The notes below the pieces were generated by a model, which saw only the letters and a list, made by a program, of their open reading frames with translations, made no database searches and was not told the origin of the DNA. From positions 62,001 to 126,000 of the forward strand of contig JANQPH010000011.1 in the NCBI GenBank assembly GCA_028285405.1: a stretch of DNA of 64,000 bases. Direction: 5' to 3'. Shown in pieces: positions 22,462 through 40,900 of the stretch. This stretch comes from Thermoleophilia bacterium. Its GTDB lineage: Bacteria; Actinomycetota; Thermoleophilia; Miltoncostaeales; Miltoncostaeaceae. The first letter of the stretch is position 1, and each line of letters begins with the position of its first letter. Both the position numbers and the translations under genes were made by a program.

Positions 22462-22749
22462 GTGAGCCACGTACTGACTGCGGTGGCGCTACGCCAGCCT
22501 CAGCTCGACGCGATTCACGCGCGGGTCACCGGGCGCGTACCGCTCCCGCTGAGCGCCGGCTTCTCGGGCTGCGAGGTACGAGTACCGGCTGCGCGATCGA
22601 ACGTTCGGCACCGGCGCTGTGGCCGGCGGGCAGTGTTCTCGCTCATCCTGCTCGACGGCGAGCGGGTCGACGTGTGCCCGGAGCACGCGGAGGCCGGTGG
22701 GCCGTCGAGCGAGTCCCGGCCGCACGGCGACCATCGGGACCCGGGCTGA
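22462..22749 (+). CDS. Small Cys/His-containing protein, first gene of the acs unit
   Basis: 95 residues from a GTG with AAGGA 6 bases upstream. No signal peptide or membrane span is visible. Cysteines and histidines cluster in the second half (FSGCEV, RHRRCGRRAVF, VDVCPEHAE), which could form a small zinc site. It ends 4 bases before acs, so the two are co-transcribed from promoter A. I do not recognise the family. Its place in a regulated catabolic unit suggests an accessory or regulatory role, but that is inference. Confidence 0.65.
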   Translation: MSHVLTAVALRQPQLDAIHARVTGRVPLPLSAGFSGCEVRVPAARSNVRHRRCGRRAVFSLILLDGERVDVCPEHAEAGGPSSESRPHGDHRDPG

Positions 22750-22753
22750 CGCC

Positions 22754-24715
<1,962 letters not shown>

Positions 24716-24810: not shown

Positions 24811-25635
24811 CTACCGCGACTTCGATTGGACGGGGTTGCGCAGTCGGCCGAGCCCCGCGATCTCCATCTCGACGAGATCGCCTGGCTGCAGTGACCGCTG
24901 CGGGTCCATGAACTCGCCGCACCCCCACGGCGTCCCGGTGATCACGAGGTCGCCTGGCTCGAGCGTGAACGCCCGCGAGCAGAACGACAGGATCTCGGCC
25001 ACCCCGAAGACCATCTTCGAGGTCGACGAGTCCTGAACCGGTTCCCCGTTCACCCAGGTCTGGAGACGAAGCGACTGCGGGTCGGCGACATCGTCGGCGG
25101 TCACGACGGCCGGACCGACGGGGCAGAACGTATCGAGGCTCTTGCCCCGCACCCACTGTCCGTCGCCGAACTGCAGGTCCCGCGCCGAGACGTCGTTGGC
25201 GACGGTGTAGCCAAATACGTGATCGAGCGCGTCGGCTGTCTCGACGTCCTGCATCCGCGTGCCGATGACCACTCCGAGCTCCACCTCCCAATCGACCCTG
25301 GCCGTGAGCTCCCGATCGATGACGATCGGGTCGTGCGGCCCGGCCAGGCTCGACGGGAACTTGGCGAACACCAGTGGAGCGGAGGGTTCGTCGAGGCCCG
25401 CCTCCGCGATGTGGTCGCGGTAGTTCAGGCCGATCGCGACGATCTTGCCCGGGCGCAGCGGCGCGCCGAGGGTCGCCTCGGAGACGGGGCCGAGATCATC
25501 GCCCCCATCCGCCGGCGTGCAGAGCTCGCCAAGGACCTCGTCGGGCTGGTCGGCGGTGGACAACGAGACGAGCCGTCCATCCGCTTCGGTGGCGAGCGCC
25601 CATCCGTCTGCGGTTCGAACGTTGTAGATGCGCAT
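24811..25635 (-). CDS. Fumarylacetoacetate hydrolase family protein
   Basis: 274 residues. A short N-terminal domain (MRIYNVRTADG) is followed by the FAH fold. KIVAIGLNYRDHIAEAG opens the catalytic domain, and DWEVELGVVIG carries the acidic metal ligands. GYTVANDVSARDLQ, GKSLDTFCPVGP and ITGTPWGCGEFMDP are standard family blocks. Such enzymes hydrolyse or decarboxylate beta-diketo or ring-cleavage acids using a divalent metal. It is the last gene of the long leftward operon and so probably acts late in the pathway. AAGGAGAGG precedes ATG 25635. The exact substrate cannot be read from sequence. Confidence 0.9.
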   Translation of the reverse strand: MRIYNVRTADGWALATEADGRLVSLSTADQPDEVLGELCTPADGGDDLGPVSEATLGAPLRPGKIVAIGLNYRDHIAEAGLDEPSAPLVFAKFPSSLAGPHDPIVIDRELTARVDWEVELGVVIGTRMQDVETADALDHVFGYTVANDVSARDLQFGDGQWVRGKSLDTFCPVGPAVVTADDVADPQSLRLQTWVNGEPVQDSSTSKMVFGVAEILSFCSRAFTLEPGDLVITGTPWGCGEFMDPQRSLQPGDLVEMEIAGLGRLRNPVQSKSR

Positions 25636-25723
25636 GCGGCCCCTCTCCTTTGGTCGACGACCGTTCACAGCTCGGGTGCCGGGGGATTGGATCGGTCACC
25701 CATGGCGTGCGCCTTCTCATCCG

Positions 25724-26221
25724 TCAGTCGTCCGAGAGGCGCTCGACCAAGCTGATCCTGGTGCGGATCGGAATACCCCCCTCGATGCTCATCGAGACCG
25801 GACATCGCTCCGCGATGTCGCCCAGACGAGCAACGTCCTCGGCCGAGAGCGTCCCCCTCACCTCGATCTCACGGGAGAGCTTCTTGATCCGGACGTCGAT
25901 GTTGTCGTCGTCGGCCAGCGCGGGCAGATCGCCGCCGGGGCGCTCCCTGCCCGTGGCCATTCCGGCGATCGCGTTCACGCTGACGCGGCAGTCGTCGAGC
26001 TCGATGCCTTCGATCTTGGCCTGCGACGCCAGGGTGGAGATCGTGCACGCCGCAAGGGCCCCGGCGACCTGAGCGAACGGGCTCGGGCCGGTGCCGTCTC
26101 CGCCGATCGATCGGGGCTCGTCACCGACCCAGACATGGCCCTCGCCGCGAATGACGGCGCCGACCGACAGCCACCTGACCGCCTGCACCGCCCCGATCGG
26201 CTCGTTGATCTCGTTCCCCAT
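25724..26221 (-). CDS. OsmC family protein (operon copy 2)
   Basis: 165 residues of the OsmC/Ohr fold. The two redox cysteines expected in the family are present in LAACTISTLA and ERCPVS. The late block CPVSMSIEGGIPIRTRISL is typical. OsmC/Ohr proteins reduce organic hydroperoxides; some members have other roles. It lies 12 bases after the ABC ATPase gene. A second, divergent OsmC protein is encoded earlier in the same operon, an unusual feature for a catabolic cluster. Confidence 0.88.
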   Translation of the reverse strand: MGNEINEPIGAVQAVRWLSVGAVIRGEGHVWVGDEPRSIGGDGTGPSPFAQVAGALAACTISTLASQAKIEGIELDDCRVSVNAIAGMATGRERPGGDLPALADDDNIDVRIKKLSREIEVRGTLSAEDVARLGDIAERCPVSMSIEGGIPIRTRISLVERLSDD

Positions 26222-26233
26222 GCAGCGTCCCTC

Positions 26234-27850
26234 CTAGGGCAGCGCCATGCGCAGCAGCTCTGTGTAGTCGGCGGTGTGCCCGTCGACCGTTCCGACGATG
26301 CGCCCGGCGCGCATGACGTGGATCTCGTCGGCGAAATCGATCAGGTCCTCGAACTCTGAGCTCGCGATCAGCGCGCCGAGCTTGTTCTCGTGCACGAGCT
26401 GCTCGACGATCTCTCGGATCTCCTGCTTCGCGCCGACGTCGATGCCCTGGGTTGGCTCCTCGAGCAACAGGAAGCTCGGAACGCCTTGGATCGCTCTCGC
26501 CAGCGCGACCTTCTGCTGGTTGCCGCCGCTCAGCTGTCCGGCGGGCACGTGAATGCCGGCCCCGCGAATGTCGAACATCCGTGAGTACTCGCCGGCGCGC
26601 TGAGCCTCGGCGCCGCGCTTTCGGTAGCCCACCCACGACAGCCCGCCGGTCACGGGGAGGGCGATGTTCTCGCGAATGCTGAGGAGCCCGGCGATACCGG
26701 CGGTGCGCCGGTCCGCGGGCACCAGCTCGAGACCCTTGCGGACGGCGACCGCGGGCGATCCTGGCCGGAGCGCGGTACCGCCGATGGTGACGTCGCCCCG
26801 GTCGTAGGCGATCCTGCCGGCGAGTGCGGCGAGGAGGGGTCCGAAGCCGGCGCCCTGGACGCCGGCGATGCCCACCACCTGCCCCGGCCTGACGGTGAGC
26901 GACACGTCCTCGACCTGTCCGTCGACGGACAGGCCACGCACGTCGAGTGTCCCGGAGGTCGCGCCACGGACGCGGTTCAGGCGCTTGCGCTCGCCGCGTC
27001 TCTCGCCGTGGTTGACCTTGGTCATCAGGTTGATCAGCCGCTCGCGGTCAACCTCATCGCGGTGGAACGTTCCGACGAGCTTCCCGTCCCGGAGGACCGT
27101 GAGTCGATCGGCGATCCGGAGCACCTCGCTGAGACGGTGGCTCACGTAGACGACGGCGACCTTGCCCTCGTCTCTGGCCCTCGCCAGCCATTCCAGCAAG
27201 TGGTCGGCATCCGCTGCCGAGAGCACCGCGGTGGGTTCGTCGCACAGCACTACCGATCCCTCGGCGACGAGCGCATGCGCGATCTGGGCGAGGCGCAACT
27301 CGGAGACGCTCATCCGGCCTGCCAGGCGATCCGGGTCCAGGCGAGCGCCGACCCGCTCGAAGGCGGCCTCGACGACCTCGCGCTCTGATCTGCTGGTCCT
27401 CGAGCGACGCACGAAGGGGCGCTCGAGCCCGAGTAGGACGTTTCGGCCCACCGTGAGCTGATCGCATGCCTCGACCTCCTGGGGCACGAGCTTGATCCCG
27501 TGCTTGCGACCGTCGCGTGGCGAGCGCAGACGCACCTGCTCCCCACCCATGACGATCTCTCCGCCATCGGGCTGATAGGCGCCCATCAGCAGCTTGAGCA
27601 GCGTCGACTTCCCGGCGCCGTTCTCACCGACGACCGCGTGCACCTCGCCCCGCTTGGCGTCGAAGCTGACCGAGTCGAGCGCCCGCACCCCGGGAAACTC
27701 CTTCGTGATGTCGACCAGCCTGATCGCCGCAGGGTCGGCACCACGCGTCGCCGAGCGACCCGAGGGCGACCTGCGCATCCGCCCTCGGGTCGCCTTCCAC
27801 AGGGCCTGCCCGGTCGTGCGCAGGCCGCCGGTGGGGCTGGCGTCAGCCAT
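26234..27850 (-). CDS. Sugar-type ABC importer ATP-binding protein (RbsA/MglA-like), system 1
   Basis: 538 residues with two fused nucleotide-binding domains. Domain 1 has an intact Walker A (GENGAGKST) and Walker B (VVLCDEPTAVLS), but its signature is degenerate (MSVSELRLAQ). Domain 2 has a degenerate Walker A (GVQGAGFGPLL) but an intact LSGGNQQK signature and LLLEEPT. This mirror-image pairing is normal for the MglA/RbsA family. About 40 extra N-terminal residues precede domain 1. The start overlaps the binding-protein gene by 8 bases. Confidence 0.92.
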   Translation of the reverse strand: MADASPTGGLRTTGQALWKATRGRMRRSPSGRSATRGADPAAIRLVDITKEFPGVRALDSVSFDAKRGEVHAVVGENGAGKSTLLKLLMGAYQPDGGEIVMGGEQVRLRSPRDGRKHGIKLVPQEVEACDQLTVGRNVLLGLERPFVRRSRTSRSEREVVEAAFERVGARLDPDRLAGRMSVSELRLAQIAHALVAEGSVVLCDEPTAVLSAADADHLLEWLARARDEGKVAVVYVSHRLSEVLRIADRLTVLRDGKLVGTFHRDEVDRERLINLMTKVNHGERRGERKRLNRVRGATSGTLDVRGLSVDGQVEDVSLTVRPGQVVGIAGVQGAGFGPLLAALAGRIAYDRGDVTIGGTALRPGSPAVAVRKGLELVPADRRTAGIAGLLSIRENIALPVTGGLSWVGYRKRGAEAQRAGEYSRMFDIRGAGIHVPAGQLSGGNQQKVALARAIQGVPSFLLLEEPTQGIDVGAKQEIREIVEQLVHENKLGALIASSEFEDLIDFADEIHVMRAGRIVGTVDGHTADYTELLRMALP

Positions 27851-29063
27851 CCCCTGGCTCGTATCCCTCTTGGATGTACTCCAGCGTCCTCGCCGTCTCG
27901 TCGACCGGCAGGTCCTCCGCTGTGTAGGTCGTCAGGGGGATGCACGTCAGGGCCGGAATGTCCGTGTCTCCGTTGAGGATCGAGACCGCCGTGCCGACGC
28001 CCTGGTAGCCCATGGGCGTCGGGGTGATGCCGATCAGCTTGGAGATCGAGCCGTCCTCGAGATCCTCGGCCGACTGCGGATCCAGCCCGTTCGTGATGAA
28101 CGCGATGTCCTGTGCGTTCGACGGCAGTGCGTCCGGGTCCAGGAGCAGGTTGAACACCGTGTAGACCCACTGCGCGTCCGGGTTCGCCTGGAAGGCGTTC
28201 TCGAACGACTGCAGTCCCTCCGCCGGATCGACGTTCTGCGTCGGCGACGCGACGATCTCGATGTTCGGGTACTCCTCGTCGACCCGCTCCTTGAAGCCGG
28301 CGACCCGGCTCGCGGACCACGTTGCGTTGGCCGGGCCGGCGATGATGATTCCTGGCCCCGCATCCTCGCCGAGCTCCTCGACGAGCAGGTCCGCGGAGTC
28401 CCGGCCCATCTGGTAGTCGTCCTGCATGATCATGTAGGCGTCGGGGGAGGCGGCCTCGGTGCCCACGATGACGACCGGGATGTCCTCCTGCCGGAATCGA
28501 TTGACGACGGCCACGCCACCCTGGATGTCGGTGGGAATCACGACCGCGGCATCGATCCCGGTCCGGATCAGCTGCCCGGCCTGATCCAGTTGCTGCTCTG
28601 GAGAGGCGTACCCCGTACCGGCTGACACCAGCTCCAGATCGACGCCGGCCTCATCAGCGGCGCGAAGAGCGCCGCTCGAGCCGGCTTGGTAGTAGTGGCC
28701 CGCGAGCGTGGGCTCCATGAATCCGATGGTGTAGTCGCCGTCGGCTGTCGGTACCTCGTAGGCCGCCGCCTCTTCGGGCGTCGGCTCGACCGTGCACGGG
28801 AGGTTGGTCGCCAGCTTCTCGTCGGTCGACAGCGCCTGATATTCGGCGTACGCCTGATCATCGGGCGTCGCCGCGATCTCACGGCCGTCGGCGCTTGCGC
28901 CGTTGCCGTCGTCGTCACCGCCGCACGCCGCGAATGCGAATGCGGACATGCCCCCGATTGCGAGGACCAAGCCGGCTTGCCCTGTCCTCTTGAGCAAGCG
29001 GGCGCTCCGTGCGCGCCGCCGCCCTCCCGATTTGCGTGGTCCACGTTGGTTGGTGGTGTTCAC
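27843..29063 (-). CDS. Sugar-type ABC importer substrate-binding lipoprotein, system 1
   Basis: 406 residues. A long basic leader and a lipobox (AFAAC, Cys47) give a lipid-anchored protein. The mature part is a periplasmic-binding-protein type I (ribose/AI-2/galactose cluster B) fold: YTIGFMEPTLAGHYYQAG, QLDQAGQLIRTGIDAAVVIP and GPGIIIAGPANATWSASRVAGF. The ligand is unknown; the two systems in this regulon have clearly different binding proteins. The GTG start at 29063 follows AAGGAGGGG. Confidence 0.9.
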   Translation of the reverse strand: MNTTNQRGPRKSGGRRRARSARLLKRTGQAGLVLAIGGMSAFAFAACGGDDDGNGASADGREIAATPDDQAYAEYQALSTDEKLATNLPCTVEPTPEEAAAYEVPTADGDYTIGFMEPTLAGHYYQAGSSGALRAADEAGVDLELVSAGTGYASPEQQLDQAGQLIRTGIDAAVVIPTDIQGGVAVVNRFRQEDIPVVIVGTEAASPDAYMIMQDDYQMGRDSADLLVEELGEDAGPGIIIAGPANATWSASRVAGFKERVDEEYPNIEIVASPTQNVDPAEGLQSFENAFQANPDAQWVYTVFNLLLDPDALPSNAQDIAFITNGLDPQSAEDLEDGSISKLIGITPTPMGYQGVGTAVSILNGDTDIPALTCIPLTTYTAEDLPVDETARTLEYIQEGYEPGDG

Positions 29064-29111
29064 GTCCCCTCCTTAAGGGTGTGGAGGCAGGCTGCTGCCT
29101 GCGACTTGACC

Positions 29112-30188
29112 TCAGACGTCGTCGTTCGCCGGTCCGTCGGCCGCTTCGCGCATCGGTCCGGCCTGGCCACCTCCACCGCCGCCGCGCCTGCGGAGTCGTC
29201 GCACGAGCGACCAGTCCGCGATGTTTCGCCGCTGGTTGAAGACGACCGCGAGGACGAGGACGACCCCGGTTGTCATCTGGCGGGTGAACTCCGAGACGCC
29301 CACGATCTCGAGGCCGCTCGTCAGGACCGTGAGGATCAGGACGCCGATCGCGACGCCAAGGAGCCGGCCACGGCCGCCGCCGATGGCTGCGCCACCGATC
29401 ACGGCGGCCGCGATGGACTCCAGTTCCAGTCCAGCCCCGAGGCTCGCCTGACCGACGGTGACGCGCGACGCCAACATGACTCCTGCCACCGCGGCCAACA
29501 TGCTGCAGAAGACGTAGGCGAGGATCTCGTATCTGGCGACGGGGATGCCGGAGAGTCGAGCGGTCTCGCGGCTTCCGCCGATGGCGTAGATGTAGAGGCC
29601 GGCTCGCAAGCGGTTGAAGAGGATGTAGGCGACGGCGATGACGATGACGGCGATGCCCACCGTTGCCGGGATCGGGCCCCAGTCGGTGGCTCCGAACCAC
29701 TTGAGGTTCGGATCGCTGATCGGGACCGACGCGCCGTTGCTGAGCTCGTTCGAGAGCCCGATGAGAAACGTGAGCATCGCCAGGGTCGCGACGAACGCAT
29801 TCACCTTGAGCCTTGCGATCACGATGCCGTTGACGAGGCCGACCCCCGCGCCGGCGGCAAGCGCCAAGAGCACCCCGGGGACCAAGCCGTAGTCATCGGC
29901 GTTGAGCGCGAAGACCGTCGACGCGAAGCCGACGGTGGCGGCAACCGAGATGTCGAAGCCACCGACCACGAGCGCCGCCATTTGCCCGATGGCAACGACC
30001 ATGAGTACGCCGGCCTGGCGGCCGAGGATCTCCAGGGTGTCGGAGCCCCCGAACACATCCGGGCTCCAGATCCAGAAGACGACGTACATGAGGACCAAGA
30101 CGACCAGGAGCTGGCTCTCGAGCCTCGGAAGGCGCCCGAACAGCGCCCTCACATCCGCGGCGGCGGTGCTAGTTGATTGTGTAGCCAC
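29112..30188 (-). CDS. Sugar-type ABC importer permease (RbsC-like), system 1
   Basis: 358 residues with about ten spans. Family blocks are VVGGFDISVAATVGFAS near residue 75, AIGGSRETARLSGIPV, and ESIAAAVIGGAAIGGGRGRLLG. The C-terminal tail is cytoplasmic and rich in Arg and Gly. It would pair with the ATPase at 26234 and the binding protein at 27843. The GTG start lies 20 bases inside the end of the preceding SDR gene, so translation is coupled. Confidence 0.9.
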   Translation of the reverse strand: MATQSTSTAAADVRALFGRLPRLESQLLVVLVLMYVVFWIWSPDVFGGSDTLEILGRQAGVLMVVAIGQMAALVVGGFDISVAATVGFASTVFALNADDYGLVPGVLLALAAGAGVGLVNGIVIARLKVNAFVATLAMLTFLIGLSNELSNGASVPISDPNLKWFGATDWGPIPATVGIAVIVIAVAYILFNRLRAGLYIYAIGGSRETARLSGIPVARYEILAYVFCSMLAAVAGVMLASRVTVGQASLGAGLELESIAAAVIGGAAIGGGRGRLLGVAIGVLILTVLTSGLEIVGVSEFTRQMTTGVVLVLAVVFNQRRNIADWSLVRRLRRRGGGGGGQAGPMREAADGPANDDV

Positions 30189-30930
30189 AGTCGACCATCA
30201 GCAGGTGGCCGTGGACCATTCGTGCGTCCGGGCCAGCGAGGAAGACAGCGGCCCGAGCGATGTCCTCCGGCTCCGGAAAGACGCCTGCTGGGATCCTCGA
30301 CTTGATCGCCTCTGCGATCTCCGGGTTCTCCTCGAAGAGCGGCTTGACCATCTCGGTCAGCGTCGCCGTGGGCCCGATCGCGTTGACGTTCACGCCCTTG
30401 GCGGCCCACTCGACCGCCAGGGCTCTCGTGAGCTGCGCGACACCGCCCTTGCTCGCCGCGTAGACGGAGAACTCGTGCATCCCGACGACGCTGAACGTCG
30501 AGGCGAGGTTGACGATGTTCCCGCCGCCACGCTCGATCATTCGGCGGCCTCCCTCCTGGCAGGAGAAGAAGAGCGCCTTGAGGTTCGTGTCGAGGACCTC
30601 GTCCCAGTTCTCCTCGGTCACCTCGAGCGCGGGGCGGTCACCCTGGACGCCGAGGCTGTTGACCAGCAGGTCGGACTCCCCGAGCTCGGCTTCGATCTCG
30701 TCGAAGATCGACGGCATCAGGGAGACGTTCGTGAGATCGGCGACGACGGAATGGCTCTTGGCTCCGTGCCGGTCGATATCCGCGACGGCGGCGGCCAGGG
30801 CGTCCTCGTCTCGGCCGATGACCGCCACGCTGGCGCCCTCTTGCGCATACGCCGTCGCGATCGCGCGGCCGAGCCCGCGAGAGCCGCCGTTCACGATCGC
30901 CACCCGTCCTTTCAGCTTGCCGTCTTGCAT
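30169..30930 (-). CDS. Short-chain dehydrogenase/reductase (operon copy 2)
   Basis: 253 residues of the classical SDR type. The cofactor motif is NGGSRGLGRAI, the catalytic Ser is in NLASTFSVVG, and Tyr and Lys are in YAASKGG. The usual NNAG block is changed to VNSLGV. It resembles gluconate/2-keto-3-deoxygluconate 5-dehydrogenases, so oxidation of a hydroxyl in a sugar-acid-like compound is plausible but not proven. GAGGAGG precedes ATG 30930; the upstream in-frame start at 30960 is not needed. Confidence 0.9.
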   Translation of the reverse strand: MQDGKLKGRVAIVNGGSRGLGRAIATAYAQEGASVAVIGRDEDALAAAVADIDRHGAKSHSVVADLTNVSLMPSIFDEIEAELGESDLLVNSLGVQGDRPALEVTEENWDEVLDTNLKALFFSCQEGGRRMIERGGGNIVNLASTFSVVGMHEFSVYAASKGGVAQLTRALAVEWAAKGVNVNAIGPTATLTEMVKPLFEENPEIAEAIKSRIPAGVFPEPEDIARAAVFLAGPDARMVHGHLLMVDCGYTIN

Positions 30931-30997
30931 GACACCTCCTCTCGGTCTCACCGCAATCACTTCGAGGCGGCCGCGTGCTTCAGCGCGGCCGCGGACT

Positions 30998-31570
30998 TCA
31001 CATACTCAGCTCCGCGATCCGCTCGCCGTTGCACACGACCTCGGTGCTGATCGGCACCGAGGCGACGAGCGACTGCTCGACGAAGCAGGCCTGCTCTGCG
31101 GTGCGCACCATTTGCTCGACGTCGTCCGGACTCGCGGACGACTCGATGGTGATCGTGTTGGTGACCTTGAAAGCTCGTCCGGACCGGGTCTGGTTCCTCC
31201 AGGCCCCGGACTGCTCGTAGTAGTAGGTCTGCTCGACCGTCGCGGATTGCAGGTCGAGCTTGTTCGCCTTCGCGTATTGGGAGATCTGCGTGAGGACGCA
31301 GAACGCGCCGGCAGCTGCCAGGTAGGTGAGCGGCTCCGGCGCGCTGTCCTCACCGCCGAGGGGCTGACCCTCGTCGGAGATGACCTGCCAGGCGCTCCCG
31401 ACGGGATGCTCGTGCGCGACGTGCGCACGCTTTCTCTCGCCGTCGTCGATGGTGGCCGACGCCCGGACGACGATCGCGGCACCATCGGTCTCCTCGGGCG
31501 GCAGCCCGGACCGGTCGGCGCGATCGGTCAGCCTGCGGACGATCGGCTTGTCGGTGGGTGTGTCAGGCAC
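30998..31570 (-). CDS. OsmC family protein (operon copy 1)
   Basis: 190 residues. PEPLTYLAAAGAFCVLTQISQYAK and the late AEQACFVEQSL supply the two cysteines of the OsmC fold. It is longer than, and only distantly similar to, the second OsmC protein of the operon. The GTG start overlaps the amidohydrolase stop by 8 bases. Peroxide reduction is the known role of the family; why a catabolic operon should encode two is not clear. Confidence 0.87.
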   Translation of the reverse strand: MPDTPTDKPIVRRLTDRADRSGLPPEETDGAAIVVRASATIDDGERKRAHVAHEHPVGSAWQVISDEGQPLGGEDSAPEPLTYLAAAGAFCVLTQISQYAKANKLDLQSATVEQTYYYEQSGAWRNQTRSGRAFKVTNTITIESSASPDDVEQMVRTAEQACFVEQSLVASVPISTEVVCNGERIAELSM

Positions 31571-33332
31571 TGAGCACGACCTCCAGCCGCTCGCAGGGCT
31601 CGACTCGAATGAGTCCTTCGTCGGAGAGCCTGATGTCGCCGATCTCTCCGCAGGCGAAGCTGAACTCGAGCTGCGCGAACGGGCTCCTCAGGGGACAACC
31701 CAGCTTCGCGATCTGCTCGAACGCGTGATCGAACTTCGCCGCGATCTGGGCCATCGGCTCCGTCGACATCAGGCCCAGGAGCGGAAGCTCGACCAGGCTG
31801 AGCACCTCGCCGTCGGCAACGACGACCTTTCCGCCTCCGACCTCGGCGAGGCAGTTCATCGCGATCGCCATGTCGTCGGTGTTCGTCCCGACCGCGACGA
31901 GGTTCTCGCAGACGGCGTTCACCGATGAGGCGATCGCTCCCCGCTGGAGCTCGAACCCCTGCACGAACCCGGCGCCGGCCCCAGTGCCCTTGCCGAACCT
32001 GTCGACCATCGCCAGGGGGAGCACGTCCTGCTCGAGGTCCGGCAGGACGACTCCGTCCTCGACCCTGAGGGTCGCCCGGCGCTCATCGGTCACGAGGCTG
32101 CCCTGTGTGATCCCGATGACCCGCACGTCGACCTGGGACGCCCCGCTGTCGCTGGTGACGACCAGATGTCCGGGCTCGATCGGCCGGTCGAGCTTCACGC
32201 TGCCGAAGAAGGCCCCGGGGTAGTCCTGCGCGGGGAGCTTGACCGTCATCTCGCCGTCCTCGACAACGGTCTTCCCGCCCACCAGCACTCGTTGGATCGA
32301 GAAGTCGGTGAGCTCGTCGACGAGCAGGATGTCCGCGTGCCGACCGGGGGCCAGAACGCCCATCTCCTTGTCGAGGCCGAACACCTCGGCGTTGTTGATC
32401 GTGCCCATCTGAACCGCGAGCGCGGGTGGCACGCCGTGGGCGATCGCGACCCTGATGTTCTCGGCGATCGTCCCTTCGTGAAGGAGCTTCTCGGGCGACG
32501 CCAGATCTGCGCAGAACGCGAGTTGGCGCGGGTCGATCTTGTGCTCGGTGTAGACCTTGACCAGCGCCGGCACGTCGAACGCGCCCGAGCCCTGCCTCAT
32601 CAGGAGCCGCAGACCCGCCCGAGCCTTCATCAGCGCCTCGTCGGTCCCGACCGCCTCGTGGTCGGTCGAGGCGCCCATCGCCACGAACGCCTGGGTCTGC
32701 CGAAAGTCCGCGCCCGCCGCGTGTCCGGTGATCGTCTTGCCCTGCTCGAGGGTCGCCTCGAGCAGGCCGAGGAAGTCATCCCACTTATCGACGATCGGGA
32801 TGAACGGCGGCTCCTCCAACCCGAAGCACCCGTCCCACGACAGCATCTCGTGCATGTCCTCGACCTCGATGCCCGGTGCGGGCTGCAGGCCCAGCTCCCG
32901 GTTCTGCAGGTACGCGAGGGTCGGAACGACGAAGATGAGGCGCAGCGGCGTCGAGTCGAACGCGTCCTTGAAGAAGCGGACGGCGTCCTTGCCGCCGACG
33001 ATTCCCTGGCCGTAGAAGCCGTCCGCGTTCGCCGTCACACCGCCGAGCAGGAGTCCCTCGACGAACTCGTTGACGCCCAGGTAGCTGTGGTACATGTGGA
33101 GATGGGCGTCGATCAGCCCTGGTGTCACATAGCGGCCGTCGGCGTCGACGATCTCGGTGTCCTTGCCACGTGTGTAGGCGACGTCGCCGACGGCAGCGAT
33201 CCTTCCGCTCTTGATCGCGATGGTCGCCTCGTAGACCTCTCGTGTGAGGACGTTGACGACCCTGCCGTTCGCGACGATGGCGTCCGCGTCGGCCCTTCCC
33301 ATTGCGACGTCGATCAGGTCTCGTCTTGACAC
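31563..33332 (-). CDS. Adenine-deaminase-like amidohydrolase
   Basis: 589 residues, the length of adenine deaminase (Ade). GLIDAHLHMYHSY gives the HxH metal motif. GHAAG, DHEAVG, FCADLASPEKLL, APGRHADILLVD and the C-terminal LPLLGLMSTEPM block follow in Ade order. Two places differ from classical Ade: the ESS after HxH is replaced by YHSY, and the DPHE metal motif is replaced by ADGFYG. The substrate is therefore probably not adenine but another cyclic amide or amidine. It lies in the middle of the catabolic operon, 93 bases after an SDR gene. Confidence 0.85.
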   Translation of the reverse strand: MSRRDLIDVAMGRADADAIVANGRVVNVLTREVYEATIAIKSGRIAAVGDVAYTRGKDTEIVDADGRYVTPGLIDAHLHMYHSYLGVNEFVEGLLLGGVTANADGFYGQGIVGGKDAVRFFKDAFDSTPLRLIFVVPTLAYLQNRELGLQPAPGIEVEDMHEMLSWDGCFGLEEPPFIPIVDKWDDFLGLLEATLEQGKTITGHAAGADFRQTQAFVAMGASTDHEAVGTDEALMKARAGLRLLMRQGSGAFDVPALVKVYTEHKIDPRQLAFCADLASPEKLLHEGTIAENIRVAIAHGVPPALAVQMGTINNAEVFGLDKEMGVLAPGRHADILLVDELTDFSIQRVLVGGKTVVEDGEMTVKLPAQDYPGAFFGSVKLDRPIEPGHLVVTSDSGASQVDVRVIGITQGSLVTDERRATLRVEDGVVLPDLEQDVLPLAMVDRFGKGTGAGAGFVQGFELQRGAIASSVNAVCENLVAVGTNTDDMAIAMNCLAEVGGGKVVVADGEVLSLVELPLLGLMSTEPMAQIAAKFDHAFEQIAKLGCPLRSPFAQLEFSFACGEIGDIRLSDEGLIRVEPCERLEVVLSA

Positions 33333-33425
33333 GTTCGCTCTCTTTGGACGTGAGTTGCGGCGCGCGCGGCGTCGTCGGGATCGCCGCGCTCGAACCGGGT
33401 GTTCGCAAGTGAACGGAGCATCCAG

Positions 33426-34220
33426 CTAGTGGGCGGTCCAGCCGCCGTCGACGACGAAGCACGTGCCGGTGGCGAACCTGGACCGTTCGCTCGCGAGAAA
33501 GAGCGCTGCTTCAGCCATGTCGCTCGGCTCGGCTGCGAAGGAGCCCGACTCGCCCATGCGCAGCGGGGTCATCCGCTCGAAGGCCTGGAGCATCTCGGGG
33601 TCGCTTCGGAGTCCGGCGTTCAGCTCTGTCACCGTCATCCCCGGACAGAGTGCGTTGACGTTGATGCCGTACTGGCCGTACTCGACCGCGAGGCTTCTGG
33701 TGAGGTTCACGACGGCGCCCTTCATGGAGCAGTAGGCCGCCATGCCGTGTACGCCCACGAAGCCGAGATTCGAGGCGACGTTCACGATCTTGCCCGCCCT
33801 CTTCTCGACGAAGAAACGTATGGCGGCCTGGTTGCAGCAGAAGAGTCCCCTGAAGTTGACGGCGAAGTGCGCGTCGAGAGCCTCGGGGGCGATGTCGACG
33901 AAGTCACCCGTCGGACCGATGTTTCCGGCGGCGCAAACCAGGATGTCGAGGCCGTGGCGGTCGATCGCCTCACCGACGACCTTCTGAACTGCATCCGAGT
34001 CGGTGACGTCGAGCCTCAGGAAGTGGGCGTCGCCACCGGCGGCGTCGATGACATCGTGTGTCGGCTGACCGCCCTCGCGCGGATCGTCGCGGATGTCGGC
34101 CACGAGTACGACGGCCCCTTCCTCGGCGAACTTGAGCGCGATCGCTCGACCGATTCCCGAGCTGCCCCCAGTGATCAGCGCCACCTTTCCGGCGAGGTCA
34201 CCGGTGCCGGTCTCAGCCAT
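33426..34220 (-). CDS. Short-chain dehydrogenase/reductase (operon copy 1)
   Basis: 264 residues. TGGSSGIGRAIA is the cofactor loop and VADIRDD suggests NAD(H). CAAGNIG replaces NNAG. NVASNLGFVG has the catalytic Ser region, and YCSMKGA holds Tyr and Lys. DGGWTAH closes the protein as in 3-oxoacyl reductase-like SDRs. The ATG overlaps the dehydrogenase stop by 8 bases; a GTG 6 bases upstream is an alternative. It is about as different from the second operon SDR as two separate pathway steps would be. Confidence 0.9.
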   Translation of the reverse strand: MAETGTGDLAGKVALITGGSSGIGRAIALKFAEEGAVVLVADIRDDPREGGQPTHDVIDAAGGDAHFLRLDVTDSDAVQKVVGEAIDRHGLDILVCAAGNIGPTGDFVDIAPEALDAHFAVNFRGLFCCNQAAIRFFVEKRAGKIVNVASNLGFVGVHGMAAYCSMKGAVVNLTRSLAVEYGQYGINVNALCPGMTVTELNAGLRSDPEMLQAFERMTPLRMGESGSFAAEPSDMAEAALFLASERSRFATGTCFVVDGGWTAH

Positions 34221-35211
34221 GTCCACGCCCCGGCGAGGTCGTCGTCCTGCTCGTGGTCACGCTGCCGACGGGACGATCGGGCGGCTCGCCGTTCAACGCG
34301 CGCACCACTTCAGCGGTTGCCCGGTCCTGGAGCTCGCGCTGCGCCTCGATGGAATAGAAGCCCATGTGGGGAGTGAGGACCGCCCGCGGATGCCGCCTCA
34401 GCGGGTGGTCTGACGGCAGTGGCTCCGGATCGGTGACGTCGAGCGCGAGCCCGGACAGCGCACCGCTCTCCAGTGCCGCGAGCGCCGCCTCGTTGTCGAT
34501 GAGGGGGCCACGAGACGTGTTGATGAGGATCGGCGCCCGCGTCATCGCCGAGATCAGCCCCTCGTCGACCATGTGGTGCGTCTCGTCTGTGAGGGGTACG
34601 TGGAGGCTGACGAAGTCGGCGTGCGACACGGCCTCCTCGAGGCTCGCCGCACGACGTACCTCCGGGGCGAGATCATCGACGAGCGGGTCGAAGCAGACGA
34701 TCTCAAGGCCGAAGCCACGCGCCCGGTCGATCACACGTCGCCCGATGCCACCGGCACCGATCACCGCGAGCACCTGCTCGCCGAGCCGGCGTACGGTGCC
34801 GTCGGGCATGGACCACCCGCCCTCGCGGGTCGACGCCGCCGCGGCGACGATGTTGCGCCCGAGGCTGAGAAGCAGTCCGACCGTGTGGTCGGCGACCTCG
34901 TCCAGGCAGTAGTCCGGAACGTTCGTCACGGGGATCCCGTGTTGGTCCGCCGCGGCGATGTCGATGTTGTCCGTTCCGATCCCAGAGCGCGAGATCACCC
35001 TGCAGCCACCCGTGGACGCGGCGTCGACGACGGATCCCGTGATGGTCGCGTAGCACACAAGAAGCGCCTCGATGTCCCGCGCCGCGTCGACCAAGCTGGC
35101 CTCGTCGACGCTCTCGGCGAGAAACGGCTCGCCCCCTGCGGCGCGAATCGCGTCGAGGGTGCGGTCGAGATCAGCGAATACGTGATCAGTGATCAGCACA
35201 GGTCGCGTCAC
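34213..35211 (-). CDS. D-2-hydroxyacid dehydrogenase (NAD)
   Basis: 332 residues of the phosphoglycerate-dehydrogenase-like fold. The NAD motif GAGGIG lies at 152-157. The catalytic triad is Arg234 (NTSRGPLID), Glu263 (VTDPEPLP) and His282 (LTPHMGFYS), all present. SRSGIGTDNIDI is also standard. It interconverts a 2-keto acid and a D-2-hydroxy acid. GTG 35211 overlaps the stop of the M24 gene (GTGA); an upstream in-frame extension lies inside that gene. There is no ACT domain, so a serine-pathway role is unlikely. Confidence 0.92.
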   Translation of the reverse strand: MTRPVLITDHVFADLDRTLDAIRAAGGEPFLAESVDEASLVDAARDIEALLVCYATITGSVVDAASTGGCRVISRSGIGTDNIDIAAADQHGIPVTNVPDYCLDEVADHTVGLLLSLGRNIVAAAASTREGGWSMPDGTVRRLGEQVLAVIGAGGIGRRVIDRARGFGLEIVCFDPLVDDLAPEVRRAASLEEAVSHADFVSLHVPLTDETHHMVDEGLISAMTRAPILINTSRGPLIDNEAALAALESGALSGLALDVTDPEPLPSDHPLRRHPRAVLTPHMGFYSIEAQRELQDRATAEVVRALNGEPPDRPVGSVTTSRTTTSPGRGHG

Positions 35212-36512
35212 GACGCCAGCACGTCCTCGTAGAACGGGTGCTTGGTGAACAGGACCGGCCCGTCCTTCGTGACGAGCAGGTTCTCTTCCAAGCGCACGGT
35301 CTGCTCGAGGCCCGGGTGTCCCGCGAACGTCTCGCAGGCGAAGTACATGTTCTCCTCGAGCTCCACCGGGTAGTCCAGCGAGTACGCGCGAGAGATCCAC
35401 ATCCCCTCGTACAGCGACAGGCCGATGGAGTGGGCGAACTGCTGGAGGGTGACGGTGCCGTACTTGTCGTCGGCGTACTCGGGGAACTTGGCCGCGACGT
35501 CGGCGGTCGTGTTGCCGGCCTTCATCATCTCGATGGCCGCGTACATGCTCTCGTAGCACTCCTTGTAGAGATCTCGCTCTTTCGGAGTGAACGGGGCGTC
35601 GACCTTGAAGCAGCGGACGAAGTCGACGAAGTAGCCGCCGGGCCCAACGGCGTTCTGGTCGATGATCACGAGGTCGCCCTGGCGGATCACCTTGTCGGTG
35701 TGCCAGCGACGGTAGGGGCTCGTGTTCCCTCCAGACGCGACGATGATGTCGTAGACGAAGTCGAAGCCGTTGTCGTAGAGGTACTCGTTGACCTTGGCCG
35801 TGATGGTGCTCTCACGGACCCCGGGCTTCAGCCACTCGTTCTCGATCTTCCAGAACGACGTGTCGCCGAACGCGCTCGAGATCTTCAGGCACTCGAGCTC
35901 GTCGGGCGTCTTCACGATGCGGGCGCCCGACATGGCGGGCCAGGCGCTCACGATGTTCAGCCCGGCGCGATCGAAGGCGGCCATCGCGGAGGGGTCGGCG
36001 ATGTCGACGCCGATGTTCTCCCCCTGCACGCCGTGCTCGGTCAGCGCGTCCACGATCGACTGGACCATCTTGTCGGCCATCATCTGCTCGGCCGTCTCGG
36101 CCCACTTCCAGGTGATCGCGGGCCGGATGTTGCCGTTCAGCCAGGGAGCGTCGATCTTGGCGCACTCGAAGTCCGAGCCGGCCGTCTCGAAGAGGATCGG
36201 GTCGCCGTCGCGCGGCAACACGCAGTACCGAATGAAGATGTTGTTCTTCCAGTTCCCCTGGAAGACGCTCGTGATGTAGCGAACGTTCTCGCCGACGAAG
36301 CAGACGAGCGCACCCAGGTCGTGCTCCTCCATCTTCATCCGTGCCCGAGCCAGCCGATCCCGCCTCAGGCGATCGAAGTCCACGCGGGCCTGCCAGTCGG
36401 TCGCCGTCGTGCTGAATACCCGGCGCGGGTCGTGCTCGTGCGGCTTCCCGAGGAATGAGAGGTCCAGGCCCTTGCCCGTCGGTGTGAGCTCGTGCCCCGC
36501 GAATGTGGTCAT
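35208..36512 (-). CDS. M24 metallopeptidase-like protein (creatinase/prolidase fold)
   Basis: 434 residues. A creatinase-type N-terminal domain (GALVCFVGENVRYITSVF) precedes the pita-bread catalytic domain. The five metal ligands are recognisable: Asp285, Asp297, His361, Glu394 and Glu409. Besides Xaa-Pro peptidases, this family includes creatinase, ectoine hydrolase and the DMSP lyase DddP. The extra catalytic Asp that DddP has six residues after its His is not present here. First gene of the leftward operon, about 245 bases downstream of promoter B. Probably an amide- or C-N-bond-cleaving first step, but the substrate is unknown. Confidence 0.88.
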   Translation of the reverse strand: MTTFAGHELTPTGKGLDLSFLGKPHEHDPRRVFSTTATDWQARVDFDRLRRDRLARARMKMEEHDLGALVCFVGENVRYITSVFQGNWKNNIFIRYCVLPRDGDPILFETAGSDFECAKIDAPWLNGNIRPAITWKWAETAEQMMADKMVQSIVDALTEHGVQGENIGVDIADPSAMAAFDRAGLNIVSAWPAMSGARIVKTPDELECLKISSAFGDTSFWKIENEWLKPGVRESTITAKVNEYLYDNGFDFVYDIIVASGGNTSPYRRWHTDKVIRQGDLVIIDQNAVGPGGYFVDFVRCFKVDAPFTPKERDLYKECYESMYAAIEMMKAGNTTADVAAKFPEYADDKYGTVTLQQFAHSIGLSLYEGMWISRAYSLDYPVELEENMYFACETFAGHPGLEQTVRLEENLLVTKDGPVLFTKHPFYEDVLAS

Positions 36513-36735
36513 CGTGTGCTCCAGGGGTGTTGGTCGGTGCTCGGATGTGACGAGGCTTGGCGCTCGTCGGAAACGGGGCCGCCTGTGCGGGCTGCGCTAG
36601 CCAGTGCCAGCCGCCTCGTTTCTCCACACGCCGGCACGGCGCGACTCGCTGAGCCTCTGACCGTTGTCTGCCGTGCCGTGCGCAACGCCGTTGCTCCTTG
36701 CATCGATTTCCTGCGCCTCGAGTCGAGAACGCAAT

Positions 36736-36750
36736 GCAAGCATGACTAAC
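36736..36750 (-). promoter_or_regulatory. Regulon operator B2 (GTTAGTCATGCTTGC)
   Basis: Read on the minus strand, this is the promoter-distal copy of the operator. Its centre is exactly 21 bp from B1, as in the other two promoters. Confidence 0.7.
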
Positions 36751-36756
36751 TAATCC

Positions 36757-36771
36757 GGAAGCAACGCTAAC
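36757..36771 (-). promoter_or_regulatory. Regulon operator B1 (GTTAGCGTTGCTTCC)
   Basis: The promoter-proximal copy on the minus strand. It starts 2 bases before the -10 box of promoter B and covers it, so occupancy should exclude RNA polymerase. Confidence 0.75.
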
Positions 36772-36792
36772 CGTTGGCCTCGTGATCGTCAA
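36764..36792 (-). promoter_or_regulatory. Promoter B, driving the eleven-gene leftward operon
   Basis: On the minus strand TTGACG (36792-36787), a 17-base spacer and TAGCGT (36769-36764) match promoters A and C in sequence and spacing. The predicted leader to the M24 start codon is about 245 bases and holds no clear gene. The rest of the gap 36513-37043 shows only the operators and a hairpin. Confidence 0.8.
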
Positions 36793-36830
36793 CCAGCGGT
36801 CACAGAATGGAGCCTGGGTCCATACTGTTC

Positions 36831-36845
36831 GTCGCTGTCGCTAAC
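36831..36845 (-). promoter_or_regulatory. Possible auxiliary operator half-site D
   Basis: On the minus strand it reads GTTAGCGACAGCGAC. The left half matches the operator and the right half is degenerate. It lies about 74 bp (seven turns) upstream of B1 and has no -35/-10 of its own. It may help looping, or it may be chance. Confidence 0.3.
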
Positions 36846-36992
36846 CCGTCGTACGGGGCAGCGGGGTGTCGTTCGACGCGGAGCGCCCTGCGACGCCAGC
36901 GTCTCGAGCGCAATCGACCGCCCGGATTGCGGGTGGTGGCCGCCCAGGTACACGCGCGAGGCCGATTGCCTCGTCAGGCACGGGCCTCCGCA

Positions 36993-37018
36993 GCCCGGCC
37001 CCTGAAAGGGGGCGGGCC
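36993..37018 (-). terminator. Hairpin after the XRE-cupin regulator gene
   Basis: GCCCGGCCCC pairs with GGGGGCGGGC, with one bulged base, around a short GAAA-containing loop. It lies about 25 bases after the regulator's stop codon, so it probably insulates the regulator from promoter B downstream. Confidence 0.5.
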
Positions 37019-37043
37019 GAAGCCGGTCAGTCGGTCGGCAGCC

Positions 37044-37838
37044 TCAGCTGTTGCCGTCGCCCGGCGGCAAGCCCGGGACGGGCCCGTCCCCCGGGTCGCG
37101 GATCCCCAGCGTCGACAGATCGTCCCGGAGGATCACCGTGATCGCCCTGGTTTCGGTGTCGGTCTGGTTCACGTACCGGTGGGGTATCGAGGACGGGAAC
37201 GCGATCGAGTCGTCGACCTCGAGGTCGTAGCGCTCGAAGCCAACCGAGATCGTCATGGTCCCCTTGGTCACGAGCACGAGCTCGACGCCCGGGTGACGGT
37301 AGGACTGGCCGGCCGACTCGGCTCCGGGCGCATAGACGAGCTCGAGGAACTCGACGCCCTCGAGCGCCGTTGGCGTGAGCCGCTCCCACCGCACGCCCCC
37401 CTGCACGTCGAGAGACGCCCGCTCCCCGGCGCGAACCACGTACGGCTCGCGAGACTCGTGACTGGACCAGCCCGTTGCCGAGCCGGCCTCTTGTGGGGCA
37501 CGTAGCGCAACGGCGTGATCGGTCAGCTCGCCCGGAGGCTTGGATCGCGGCATGCCGCGCGGTGGCGGCTCGCTCGGGGCGCCGGCGTCCGCCGCCGGTG
37601 CCTCGGCGTCCACGAAGAAGCTGTCGACGGGAACCTCGAGCGCGCTCGAGATCGCGAACAGCGTTCCGACGGATGGCCGCGAGTTCCCGCGCTCGATCTG
37701 ACTGATCAGACTCGACGAGACGCCGGCGCTGCGGGCGAGCTCTGAGACGCGCATGTTCTGTGACGCGCGGAGTGTGGCGAGACGCTTCCCGATGCGCTCG
37801 GCAGCGGCCGCCGCCGACGCCCGGGCATCGACGGTCAT
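37044..37838 (-). CDS. XRE-family transcriptional regulator with C-terminal cupin
   Basis: 264 residues. An N-terminal helix-turn-helix of the XRE type (about 15-72; LRASQNMRVSELARSAGVSS with LISQIERGNSRPS) is joined by a Pro/Ala-rich linker to a cupin_2 domain (about 190-250). The cupin has the expected GVELVLVTKGTMTI and DSIAFPSSIPHRYVN strands. Such proteins sense a small molecule in the cupin pocket and repress, or sometimes activate, catabolic genes. It lies between promoters B and C and is the natural candidate to bind the paired GTTAG operators. AGGA 6 bases before ATG 37838 decides the start. Confidence 0.92.
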   Translation of the reverse strand: MTVDARASAAAAAERIGKRLATLRASQNMRVSELARSAGVSSSLISQIERGNSRPSVGTLFAISSALEVPVDSFFVDAEAPAADAGAPSEPPPRGMPRSKPPGELTDHAVALRAPQEAGSATGWSSHESREPYVVRAGERASLDVQGGVRWERLTPTALEGVEFLELVYAPGAESAGQSYRHPGVELVLVTKGTMTISVGFERYDLEVDDSIAFPSSIPHRYVNQTDTETRAITVILRDDLSTLGIRDPGDGPVPGLPPGDGNS

Positions 37839-37924
37839 CTTTCGTCCTGCTTCGCCCAATTCACGGCCGGGAGGTTAGCACCAGAGGCGGGCGGACGCGG
37901 CTCGGGGCCATTCCGTAACCATTA

Positions 37925-37953
37925 TTGACGGTAGGGCCCGTATCGGTTAGTGT
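37925..37953 (+). promoter_or_regulatory. Promoter C, driving the second ABC importer operon
   Basis: TTGACG (37925-37930), a 17-base spacer and TAGTGT (37948-37953). It has the same geometry as promoters A and B. The leader to the permease ATG at 38202 is about 240 bases, similar in length to that of promoter B. In-frame starts exist inside the leader (for example ATG 38025), but only 38202 has a strong ribosome-binding site (GAGGAGGGGG). Confidence 0.8.
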
Positions 37954-37960
37954 TGCTAAC
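37946..37960 (+). promoter_or_regulatory. Regulon operator C1 (GTTAGTGTTGCTAAC)
   Basis: A near-perfect palindrome with GTTAG and CTAAC arms. It starts 2 bases before the -10 and overlaps it fully. Confidence 0.8.
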
Positions 37961-37966
37961 GACACA

Positions 37967-37981
37967 GTTAGCCTAGCTCGC
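37967..37981 (+). promoter_or_regulatory. Regulon operator C2 (GTTAGCCTAGCTCGC)
   Basis: The second copy, 21 bp centre to centre from C1, with an intact left arm and a partly degenerate right arm. Confidence 0.7.
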
Positions 37982-38201
37982 GATCCACAGATGGTACGAC
38001 CACTGACCTTCACCCGGCGACACGATGGCGGAGCTCGACCGAGCGTTCGGCGAGCCGATGCGCCGAGCCGTCCGGTCCGCGCTCGCGCAACCGAGGTGGC
38101 TGAGGGCATGGGTCGTGGTCGGGGATGGCGTTCCCGCGGGGACGTGTCGACCGAGCCCAGGCAGACGACTGACGCCGAACATACGAGGAGGGGGCGCTGA
38201 C

Positions 38202-39242
38202 ATGACGGCGATCCGCCGACTACCGAGCCTCCCCCGAGTCAGCACCGAGCAGCTGTGGTCCGCGCTCGGGCTGCCAGCGGTGACGCTCGCGATGGTCCTC
38301 TACTTCGCGAGCCAGAGCCCGAACTTCCTCACCGTCGGCAATGCCCAGAACCTTGGCCGGAACATGGCGGCCCTCGCCGTTCTGGCCATCGGGCAGGCCT
38401 TTGTGATCGTCCTCGGGGAGATCGACATCTCACAGGGGGCCATCGTCGGGCTCGCAACCATCATGGCGGCGCTCGCGATGCAGGACGTCGGCGCGATCGG
38501 CATGCTCGCCGCGCCGCTCATCGGGCTGACGGTTGGGCTCGTGAACGGCCTGCTCGTCGCGTCCTTCTTCGTCCACTCCGTGATCATCACGATCGGAACC
38601 CTCACGACCGTGCGCGGCATCGCGTTCGAGCTCTCAGGGGGTCAACCTGTCACCGGGGACTTCTCCGAGGCGTTCACGTGGATCGGGACCGGCTTCGTGG
38701 GCCCGTTCCCGGCGCCCTTCGTGATCGCCCTCGGCGTCTGCGTCATCGCGATCCTGGTCGTGCGCTTCACCCGCTTCGGGCCATGGCTGTACGCGACCGG
38801 CGGCAACGAGGAGGCCTCTCGGCTCGCGGGCCTACCCGTCACGAGGCTGAAGATCGCCGCCTTCGGGATCTCCGGGCTCATGGCTGGAATCGCCGGGCTC
38901 ATTCTCGCGGCTCGCATCGAATCCGGGCAGCCGAACCTCGGCGCGGGCCTCGAGCTGCAGGCAATCGCGGCTGCGGTGATCGGCGGGATGGCGCTCGCGG
39001 GTGGGCGGGGTGCGCTCGCCGGGGTGCTGTTGGGCGTCGTCGTGCTGACGGTCCTTCAGAACGGCCTCGACATCACCAACGTCTCGTCCTTCACCCAGCA
39101 GATCATCAGCGGGTTGATCATCATCCTCGCCGTCGTCGTGGATCAGCTCCGTGGCGGCGGTGTGCTTGCTCGCTGGCGGCGCCGGCCCGGCAGGGCCCGC
39201 GTGCCGACAGGCCCGACCACCGGCCCGGCCGACAAGAAGTGA
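38202..39242 (+). CDS. Sugar-type ABC importer permease (RbsC-like), system 2
   Basis: 346 residues with about ten spans. VIVLGEIDISQGAIVGLATI, VVSFFVHSVIIT-like (ASFFVHSVIITIGTLTTVRGI), ATGGNEEASRLAGLPV and LQAIAAAVIGGMALAGGRG are hallmark blocks of the ribose/galactose/AI-2 permeases. The C-terminus is basic and cytoplasmic. GAGGAGGGGG precedes ATG 38202. First gene of the rightward operon under promoter C. Similar in blocks to the system 1 permease but clearly diverged, so the two importers were probably not made by a recent duplication. Confidence 0.92.
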   Translation: MTAIRRLPSLPRVSTEQLWSALGLPAVTLAMVLYFASQSPNFLTVGNAQNLGRNMAALAVLAIGQAFVIVLGEIDISQGAIVGLATIMAALAMQDVGAIGMLAAPLIGLTVGLVNGLLVASFFVHSVIITIGTLTTVRGIAFELSGGQPVTGDFSEAFTWIGTGFVGPFPAPFVIALGVCVIAILVVRFTRFGPWLYATGGNEEASRLAGLPVTRLKIAAFGISGLMAGIAGLILAARIESGQPNLGAGLELQAIAAAVIGGMALAGGRGALAGVLLGVVVLTVLQNGLDITNVSSFTQQIISGLIIILAVVVDQLRGGGVLARWRRRPGRARVPTGPTTGPADKK

Positions 39243-40795: not shown

Positions 40796-40900
40796 GTCCC
40801 GCTCGCAACCTGCCAATCGGGCGTCGCGACGCGCGACGCGTATCCCCGTGCGCCATCTCGCTGGCCACCTCGGGAGGGCAAGCATGAAAGGACAAGCACC

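What the first reader, a model, noticed from the sequence alone, without database searches (positions are those of the whole stretch)
31563..33332. Adenine-deaminase paralogue with two changed active-site motifs
The protein keeps the Ade framework (HxH, FCADLASPEKLL, C-terminal LMS block) but replaces the ESS after HxH with YHSY and the DPHE metal motif with ADGFYG. These changes touch metal and base recognition, so a different substrate is likely. Operon context supports this.
Basis: partly seen in the sequence, partly recalled or inferred. Interest (0 to 1): 0.6.

Follow-up and report, generated by a model that had tools for sequence, protein, structure and literature searches.

The report
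Adenine-deaminase relative with altered active site
This gene encodes an enzyme with the overall fold and two-metal catalytic core of bacterial adenine deaminase, but it has lost a whole set of otherwise near-universal active-site residues and sits beside sugar-type import genes, so it probably breaks down some molecule other than adenine that has not been identified.

Summary
In detail: window 33332-31563 (minus strand) encodes a 589-aa adenine-deaminase-fold protein with YHSY after HxH and ADGFYG where adenine deaminases have DPHE. The predicted structure matches Atu4426 adenine deaminase (3nqb) over its full length (TM 0.90; next fold 0.46). All six catalytic di-metal ligands and the substrate arginine are kept. 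Seven positions that are 97-100% conserved in 115 DPHE-type homologues (E81, D105, H107, E108, D277, H473, D474) are changed together. The protein belongs to a fully supported clade, separate from the Atu4426 clade, the YerA N6-methyladenine-type branch and a sister clade linked to nucleobase permeases. A CUT2 sugar-type ABC permease lies within 10 kb in 7 of 8 other clade loci versus 0 of 40 DPHE-type loci. M24 genes are near in 4 of 8; OsmC in none and FAH in one. Purine permeases or nucleoside hydrolases are absent (0 of 9). The genome has no other adenine deaminase, so 'paralogue' is inexact. Best reading: a two-metal amidohydrolase of unknown, probably non-adenine substrate in a sugar-like catabolic pathway; the reaction is inferred, not shown.

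The parts
31563..33332 (-). Adenine-deaminase-fold amidohydrolase, 589 aa, N-terminal amidohydrolase barrel plus Adenine_deam_C domain
   Evidence: pLDDT 95.6; 3nqb TM 0.90
33081..33104 (-). HLHMYHSY (residues 77-84): metal-binding HxH kept; canonical E at residue 81 replaced by Y, canonical S at 82 by H
33009..33026 (-). ADGFYG (residues 103-108) in place of xxDPHE; Y107 and G108 invariant in the clade
32901..32906 (-). Q143-N144 in a clade-specific insertion (YLQNRELG)
32811..32813 (-). E174, predicted bridging metal ligand (GLEEPP)
   Evidence: by alignment to YerA E179
32721..32723 (-). H204, predicted metal ligand
32658..32660 (-). H225, predicted metal ligand
32595..32597 (-). R246, equivalent by alignment to YerA Arg252 / Atu4426 Arg260, kept in all clade members
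32502..32507 (-). D276 (metal ligand/general base, kept) and L277 (canonical second Asp of TDD, lost)
31911..31919 (-). N472-A473-V474 in place of (A/G)-H-D of the C-terminal AHD(A/S)HN motif
30998..31570 (-). OsmC-related protein, overlaps the 3' end of the amidohydrolase gene
   Evidence: OsmC_like_Se 139.8 bits, cut-off 95
30169..30960 (-). SDR oxidoreductase; also directly downstream of the enzyme in L078/L079 (60%)
29112..30188 (-). CUT2 (ribose-type) ABC permease 1
   Evidence: 71% to L078
27843..29063 (-). CUT2 sugar-type substrate-binding protein 1
26234..27850 (-). CUT2 ABC ATPase (RbsA-like) 1
25724..26221 (-). Second OsmC-type protein
24811..25668 (-). FAH-family hydrolase
33426..34226 (-). 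SDR oxidoreductase 2, upstream of the enzyme
34213..35223 (-). D-2-hydroxyacid dehydrogenase family
35208..36512 (-). M24 peptidase-family protein, 84-90% identical to copies in L083, L172, L059
37044..37859 (-). XRE-type regulator; homologues near the enzyme in L083, L059, L172
38025..41983 (+). Second CUT2 importer: permease, ATPase, substrate-binding protein
22619..24715 (+). Acetyl-CoA-synthetase-like acyl-CoA ligase (by sequence); homologue next to the enzyme in L083 (56%)

Best explanation
The protein is a two-metal amidohydrolase of the adenine-deaminase fold (COG1001 type) that belongs to a distinct subfamily with a rebuilt substrate pocket. Shown: fold, intact catalytic di-metal hexad by alignment (H77, H79, E174, H204, H225, D276), coordinated change of seven positions that are near-universal in DPHE-type members, monophyly of the subfamily, and repeated linkage to CUT2 sugar-type ABC importers and oxidoreductases rather than purine genes. 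Inferred: D276 and the metal-bound water attack a C-N (amine, amide, lactam or imide) bond of a small polar compound imported by the CUT2 system, and the product is passed to SDR/2-hydroxyacid dehydrogenases, the M24 enzyme and acyl-CoA enzymes for use as carbon and nitrogen source. The third metal site that Atu4426 has is inferred to be absent. Adenine is judged an unlikely physiological substrate. The substrate itself is not identified.
For: Metal ligands kept in all clade members, except E174 to D in L092 (ligand roles from PMC12133300). E81, H107, E108, D277, H473, D474 are 98-100% conserved in 115 canonical rows and lost in all nine clade rows; D105 is 97% conserved and lost in eight of nine. 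Clade support 100/98 in a 61-row tree, sister to a mostly non-DPHE clade with 96/90, stable with YerA-type rows added. Structure model pLDDT 95.6, top fold 3nqb TM 0.90. CUT2 permease within 10 kb 7/8 versus 0/40 (p=1.1e-7) and M24 4/8 versus 0/40 (p=3.6e-4). Purine permease or nucleoside hydrolase 0/9 in the clade versus 12/13 in the sister clade and 10/40 in DPHE-type loci. Operon order enzyme-SDR-permease-SBP-ATPase shared with L078/L079.
Against: No activity, ligand or coordinates were examined. R246, aligned to the arginine said to contact adenine, is kept. CUT2 importers could carry nucleosides. The absence of purine genes near the clade is only weakly significant against all other loci together (p=0.021), and most DPHE-type loci also lack them. 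Loci are few (9) and were retrieved by similarity to the query.
Confidence: 0.55

Rival explanations
1. An N6-substituted adenine or adenosine deaminase, working like Bacillus YerA/Bh0637: two metals, no third site, aromatic residues enlarging the pocket, with the nucleoside imported by the ribose-type ABC transporter.
For: YerA lacks the third-metal residues (PMC12133300). By residue spacing from HxH, YerA Phe91 corresponds to Y81 here and Leu116/Phe117 to F106/Y107. The arginine is kept.
Against: YerA-type proteins (L183, L184) fall in a distant branch, so any likeness is convergent. No nucleoside hydrolase or nucleobase permease was found near the clade.
Confidence: 0.17
2. An ordinary adenine deaminase in which the changed motifs are tolerated drift.
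For: Full-length homology, Adenine_deam_C domain, catalytic hexad and arginine kept. The only such gene in a 97.6% complete genome.
Against: Seven near-universal positions change together while Y107-G108, Q143-N144 and E173 are newly conserved; non-purine neighbourhood.
Confidence: 0.12
3. A cyclic-amide (lactam, imide or hydantoin-like) ring-opening hydrolase, analogous to enamidase, feeding the M24 enzyme and dehydrogenases. This is a specific form of the best explanation.
For: Enamidase (2vun) is the second-best sequence hit in the PDB. Relatives neighbour luciferase-like monooxygenases, FAH hydrolase, BKACE, a cyclase-family protein and a GMC oxidoreductase, as is common in ring catabolism.
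Against: The enamidase similarity is short and superfamily-wide (two stretches), and neighbours vary between loci.
Confidence: 0.2
4. A catalytically inactive or regulatory relative.
For: Loss of many conserved residues.
Against: The catalytic hexad is retained across the clade, and clade members at 40-68% identity keep open frames.
Confidence: 0.04

Closest known systems
Adenine deaminase Ade (TIGR01178; Agrobacterium Atu4426, PDB 3nqb/3t81)
   Same: Whole two-domain fold, TM 0.90; di-metal ligands and arginine aligned and kept
   Different: E-S of ESS after HxH, DPHE, second Asp of TDD and C-terminal HD all lost; separate clade; non-purine neighbours; TIGR01178 score below cut-off
YerA / Bh0637 N6-methyladenine or N6-methyladenosine deaminase
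   Same: Lack of the DPHE block; aromatic residue two after HxH; two catalytic metals by alignment
   Different: Distant branch in the tree; different sequences at the changed motifs; YerA neighbourhood not compared
Unnamed sister clade of Ade-like proteins (HIECSKL / SGLDQ; L095, L096, L105, L106)
   Same: Nearest clade in the tree; also lacks DPHE
   Different: Linked to NCS1/NCS2 nucleobase permeases in 12 of 13 loci; the position of metal ligand H204 is Cys (GH to GC)
Enamidase (2vun)
   Same: Amidohydrolase superfamily barrel
   Different: 386-aa protein without the C-terminal domain; TM only 0.45 on the query length

Membership tests
Adenine deaminase (TIGR01178 equivalog) | Score above curated cut-off 472.5 | tested here: not met
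   331 bits; but an Atu4426-like protein also fails at 371, so weak test
Adenine deaminase | Amidohydrolase barrel plus Adenine_deam_C domain, full-length fold | tested here: met
Adenine deaminase | Catalytic di-metal hexad HxH, E, H, H, D | tested here: met
Adenine deaminase | HxHxESS and DPHE motifs, TDD, C-terminal AHD(A/S)HN | tested here: not met
   key positions 97-100% in 115 canonical rows, lost in the nine clade rows (D105 kept only in L092)
Adenine deaminase | Placement with the experimentally studied Atu4426 | tested here: not met
   separate starred clade
Adenine deaminase | Adenine to hypoxanthine activity | not testable with these tools
   needs purified enzyme
YerA-type N6-methyladenine deaminase | Groups with YerA-type proteins | tested here: not met
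   L183/L184 (taken as YerA-type from HPF and residue spacing) lie on a distant branch
YerA-type N6-methyladenine deaminase | Activity on N6-methylated adenine or adenosine | not testable with these tools
   needs assay
Amidohydrolase superfamily (COG1001 type) | Superfamily fold and metal site | tested here: met

The most novel reading that the evidence does not exclude
An adenine-deaminase-fold subfamily that has abandoned purines: it lost the third metal site and base-recognition shell and now hydrolyses an unidentified, sugar-like or cyclic-amide compound imported by CUT2 ABC transporters, in a catabolic pathway found in Actinomycetota and Pseudomonadota.
Probability: 0.45. Interest if true: 0.5.

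Novelty: new variant of a known kind. Interest (0 to 1): 0.38.

Why it matters
Genes of this type score best against adenine deaminase models and could be named adenine deaminase automatically; the data here suggest that such a name would be wrong for a whole subfamily. If a new substrate is found, it would show the Ade fold used outside purine metabolism and would give a function to a conserved catabolic cluster, including an M24 protein that is itself unusually conserved.

Tried and rejected
A genome-contig scan with the single protein found nothing; it worked with an alignment. The primary papers on Atu4426 and on N6-methyladenine deamination, looked up by DOI from memory, are not held. Literature searches for a named Ade-like family with this context found none. 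I rejected 'always linked to M24/OsmC/FAH' and recent transfer of the M24 gene. I did not use the TIGR01178 cut-off as proof. Substrate-binding proteins gave only general sugar-binding hits, so the imported compound could not be named.

Full report
What is there. The finding's coordinates hold one open frame on the minus strand, 33332 to 31563, GTG start, 589 aa. The start agrees with the close relative L078, whose N-terminus aligns. Pfam finds Amidohydro_1 and Adenine_deam_C. The best family model is TIGR01178 adenine deaminase at 331 bits against a cut-off of 472.5, and the best solved sequence is Atu4426 adenine deaminase 3nqb. A structure prediction with 65 homologues gives pLDDT 95.6. Foldseek places it on 3nqb with TM 0.90 over the full length, while no other fold in the list exceeds 0.46 on the query length.

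Is it a paralogue? The window's genome (2.4 Mb, 97.6% complete) holds only this one gene of the type; the TIGR01178 search finds nothing else beyond a weak 21-bit superfamily match. So it is a divergent homologue, not a second copy. The genome is most likely Actinomycetota, class Thermoleophilia: genomes in the same class carry proteins identical to those of named Conexibacter loci (L064 = L082; L066 = L092). This is an inference from shared loci.

Active site. In YerA the metals are placed on His87, His89, Glu179, His210, His231 and Asp283, and these positions are said to align roughly with Atu4426 (PMC12133300; the placement is an AlphaFold 3 model). The matching residues here are H77, H79, E174, H204, H225 and D276, all present; only L092 has D for E174. 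R246 aligns with the arginine said to contact the base. In contrast, six positions that are 98-100% identical in 115 canonical rows are lost in all nine clade rows: E81, H107, E108, D277, H473 and D474. A seventh, D105 (97%), is lost in eight of nine and kept in L092. H107 is always Y and E108 always G in the clade. New conserved features appear: Q143-N144 in an insertion, E173, N472 and E563. The same paper states that Atu4426 has a third metal whose ligands YerA lacks, but its text does not list them. That the lost set includes the third-metal ligands is my inference.

Relatives. A scan with a six-member alignment found close relatives in named records: L078 and L079 (67%), L080 (66%), L081 (50%), L082 (41%), L083 (42%) and L092 (39%). 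Whole-genome searches had already given L031 (52%), L064, L065, L002 and L066. In a 61-row maximum-likelihood tree they form one clade with 100/98 support; the sister (96/90) is another clade in which the DPHE motif is altered, and Atu4426 lies elsewhere. Adding YerA-type proteins from Halobacillus, recognised by HPF around the second His and by residue spacing, leaves the clade intact and puts YerA far away. DPHE-type proteins surround the clade, so the changed motifs are probably derived, although the root is not inferred.

Neighbourhood. In the window the genes around it form a minus-strand run: M24, 2-hydroxyacid dehydrogenase, SDR, this enzyme, OsmC, SDR, CUT2 permease, substrate-binding protein, ATPase, OsmC, FAH. 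A second CUT2 importer on the plus strand lies beyond the XRE regulator. L078/L079 keep enzyme-SDR-permease-SBP-ATPase. With stretches of up to about 10 kb either side, a CUT2 permease is present in 7 of 8 other clade loci against 0 of 40 DPHE-type loci (p=1.1e-7). For M24 it is 4 of 8 against 0 of 40, for OsmC 0 of 8, for FAH 1 of 8. The eighth locus, L082, is a 9.7 kb contig that could hide an importer. Purine permeases or nucleoside hydrolases are absent from all nine clade loci, present in 12 of 13 sister-clade loci and in 10 of 40 DPHE-type loci (overall p=0.021). Other clade neighbours are luciferase-like monooxygenase, CoA transferase, BKACE, cyclase-family protein, GMC oxidoreductase and old-yellow-enzyme types.

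Mechanism. The catalytic core predicts hydrolysis by a metal-bound water with D276 as base, as in other members. The rebuilt shell and the import and oxidoreductase context predict a non-adenine, small, polar, nitrogen-containing substrate. Whether the bond is an exocyclic amine or a ring amide cannot be told. The likeness to YerA at two changed positions keeps an N6-substituted purine deaminase alive as a rival.

Limits. The comparison loci were retrieved by similarity to the query, so the control group is not a random sample of adenine deaminases. Loci within a clade are related and counts are not independent. Residue roles come from alignment and one paper, not from coordinates. I found no activity reported for any clade member, in a library that lacks most subscription papers.

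Noticed in passing
window 35208-36512 (-); L083:6821-8215, L172:6353-7705, L059:928-2286, L170:947-2329, L171:10991-12256: M24 peptidase-family protein that is 81-93% identical between loci whose linked genes are mostly 40-60% alike (about 70% to L171), while four-fold degenerate sites match only 31-62%: strong protein-level constraint, not recent transfer. It also occurs without the amidohydrolase (L170, L171), with the same 2-hydroxyacid dehydrogenase nearby.
   Followed up: partly
L105:9914-13565, L095:9983-13576: Sister-clade Ade-like genes occur as a tandem pair of different Ade-type proteins next to a nucleobase permease; one member has GC in place of the metal-binding GH.
   Followed up: partly
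window 24811-41983: Two complete but different CUT2 sugar-type ABC importers flank the same catabolic cluster on opposite strands.
   Followed up: no
window 25724-26221 and 30998-31570: Two OsmC-type genes in one cluster, not conserved near the enzyme in relatives.
   Followed up: partly
L022, L025, L026: A further deep Ade-type branch without ESS/DPHE (HTHxx, ETDE/ETME), present in class relatives of the window genome.
   Followed up: no
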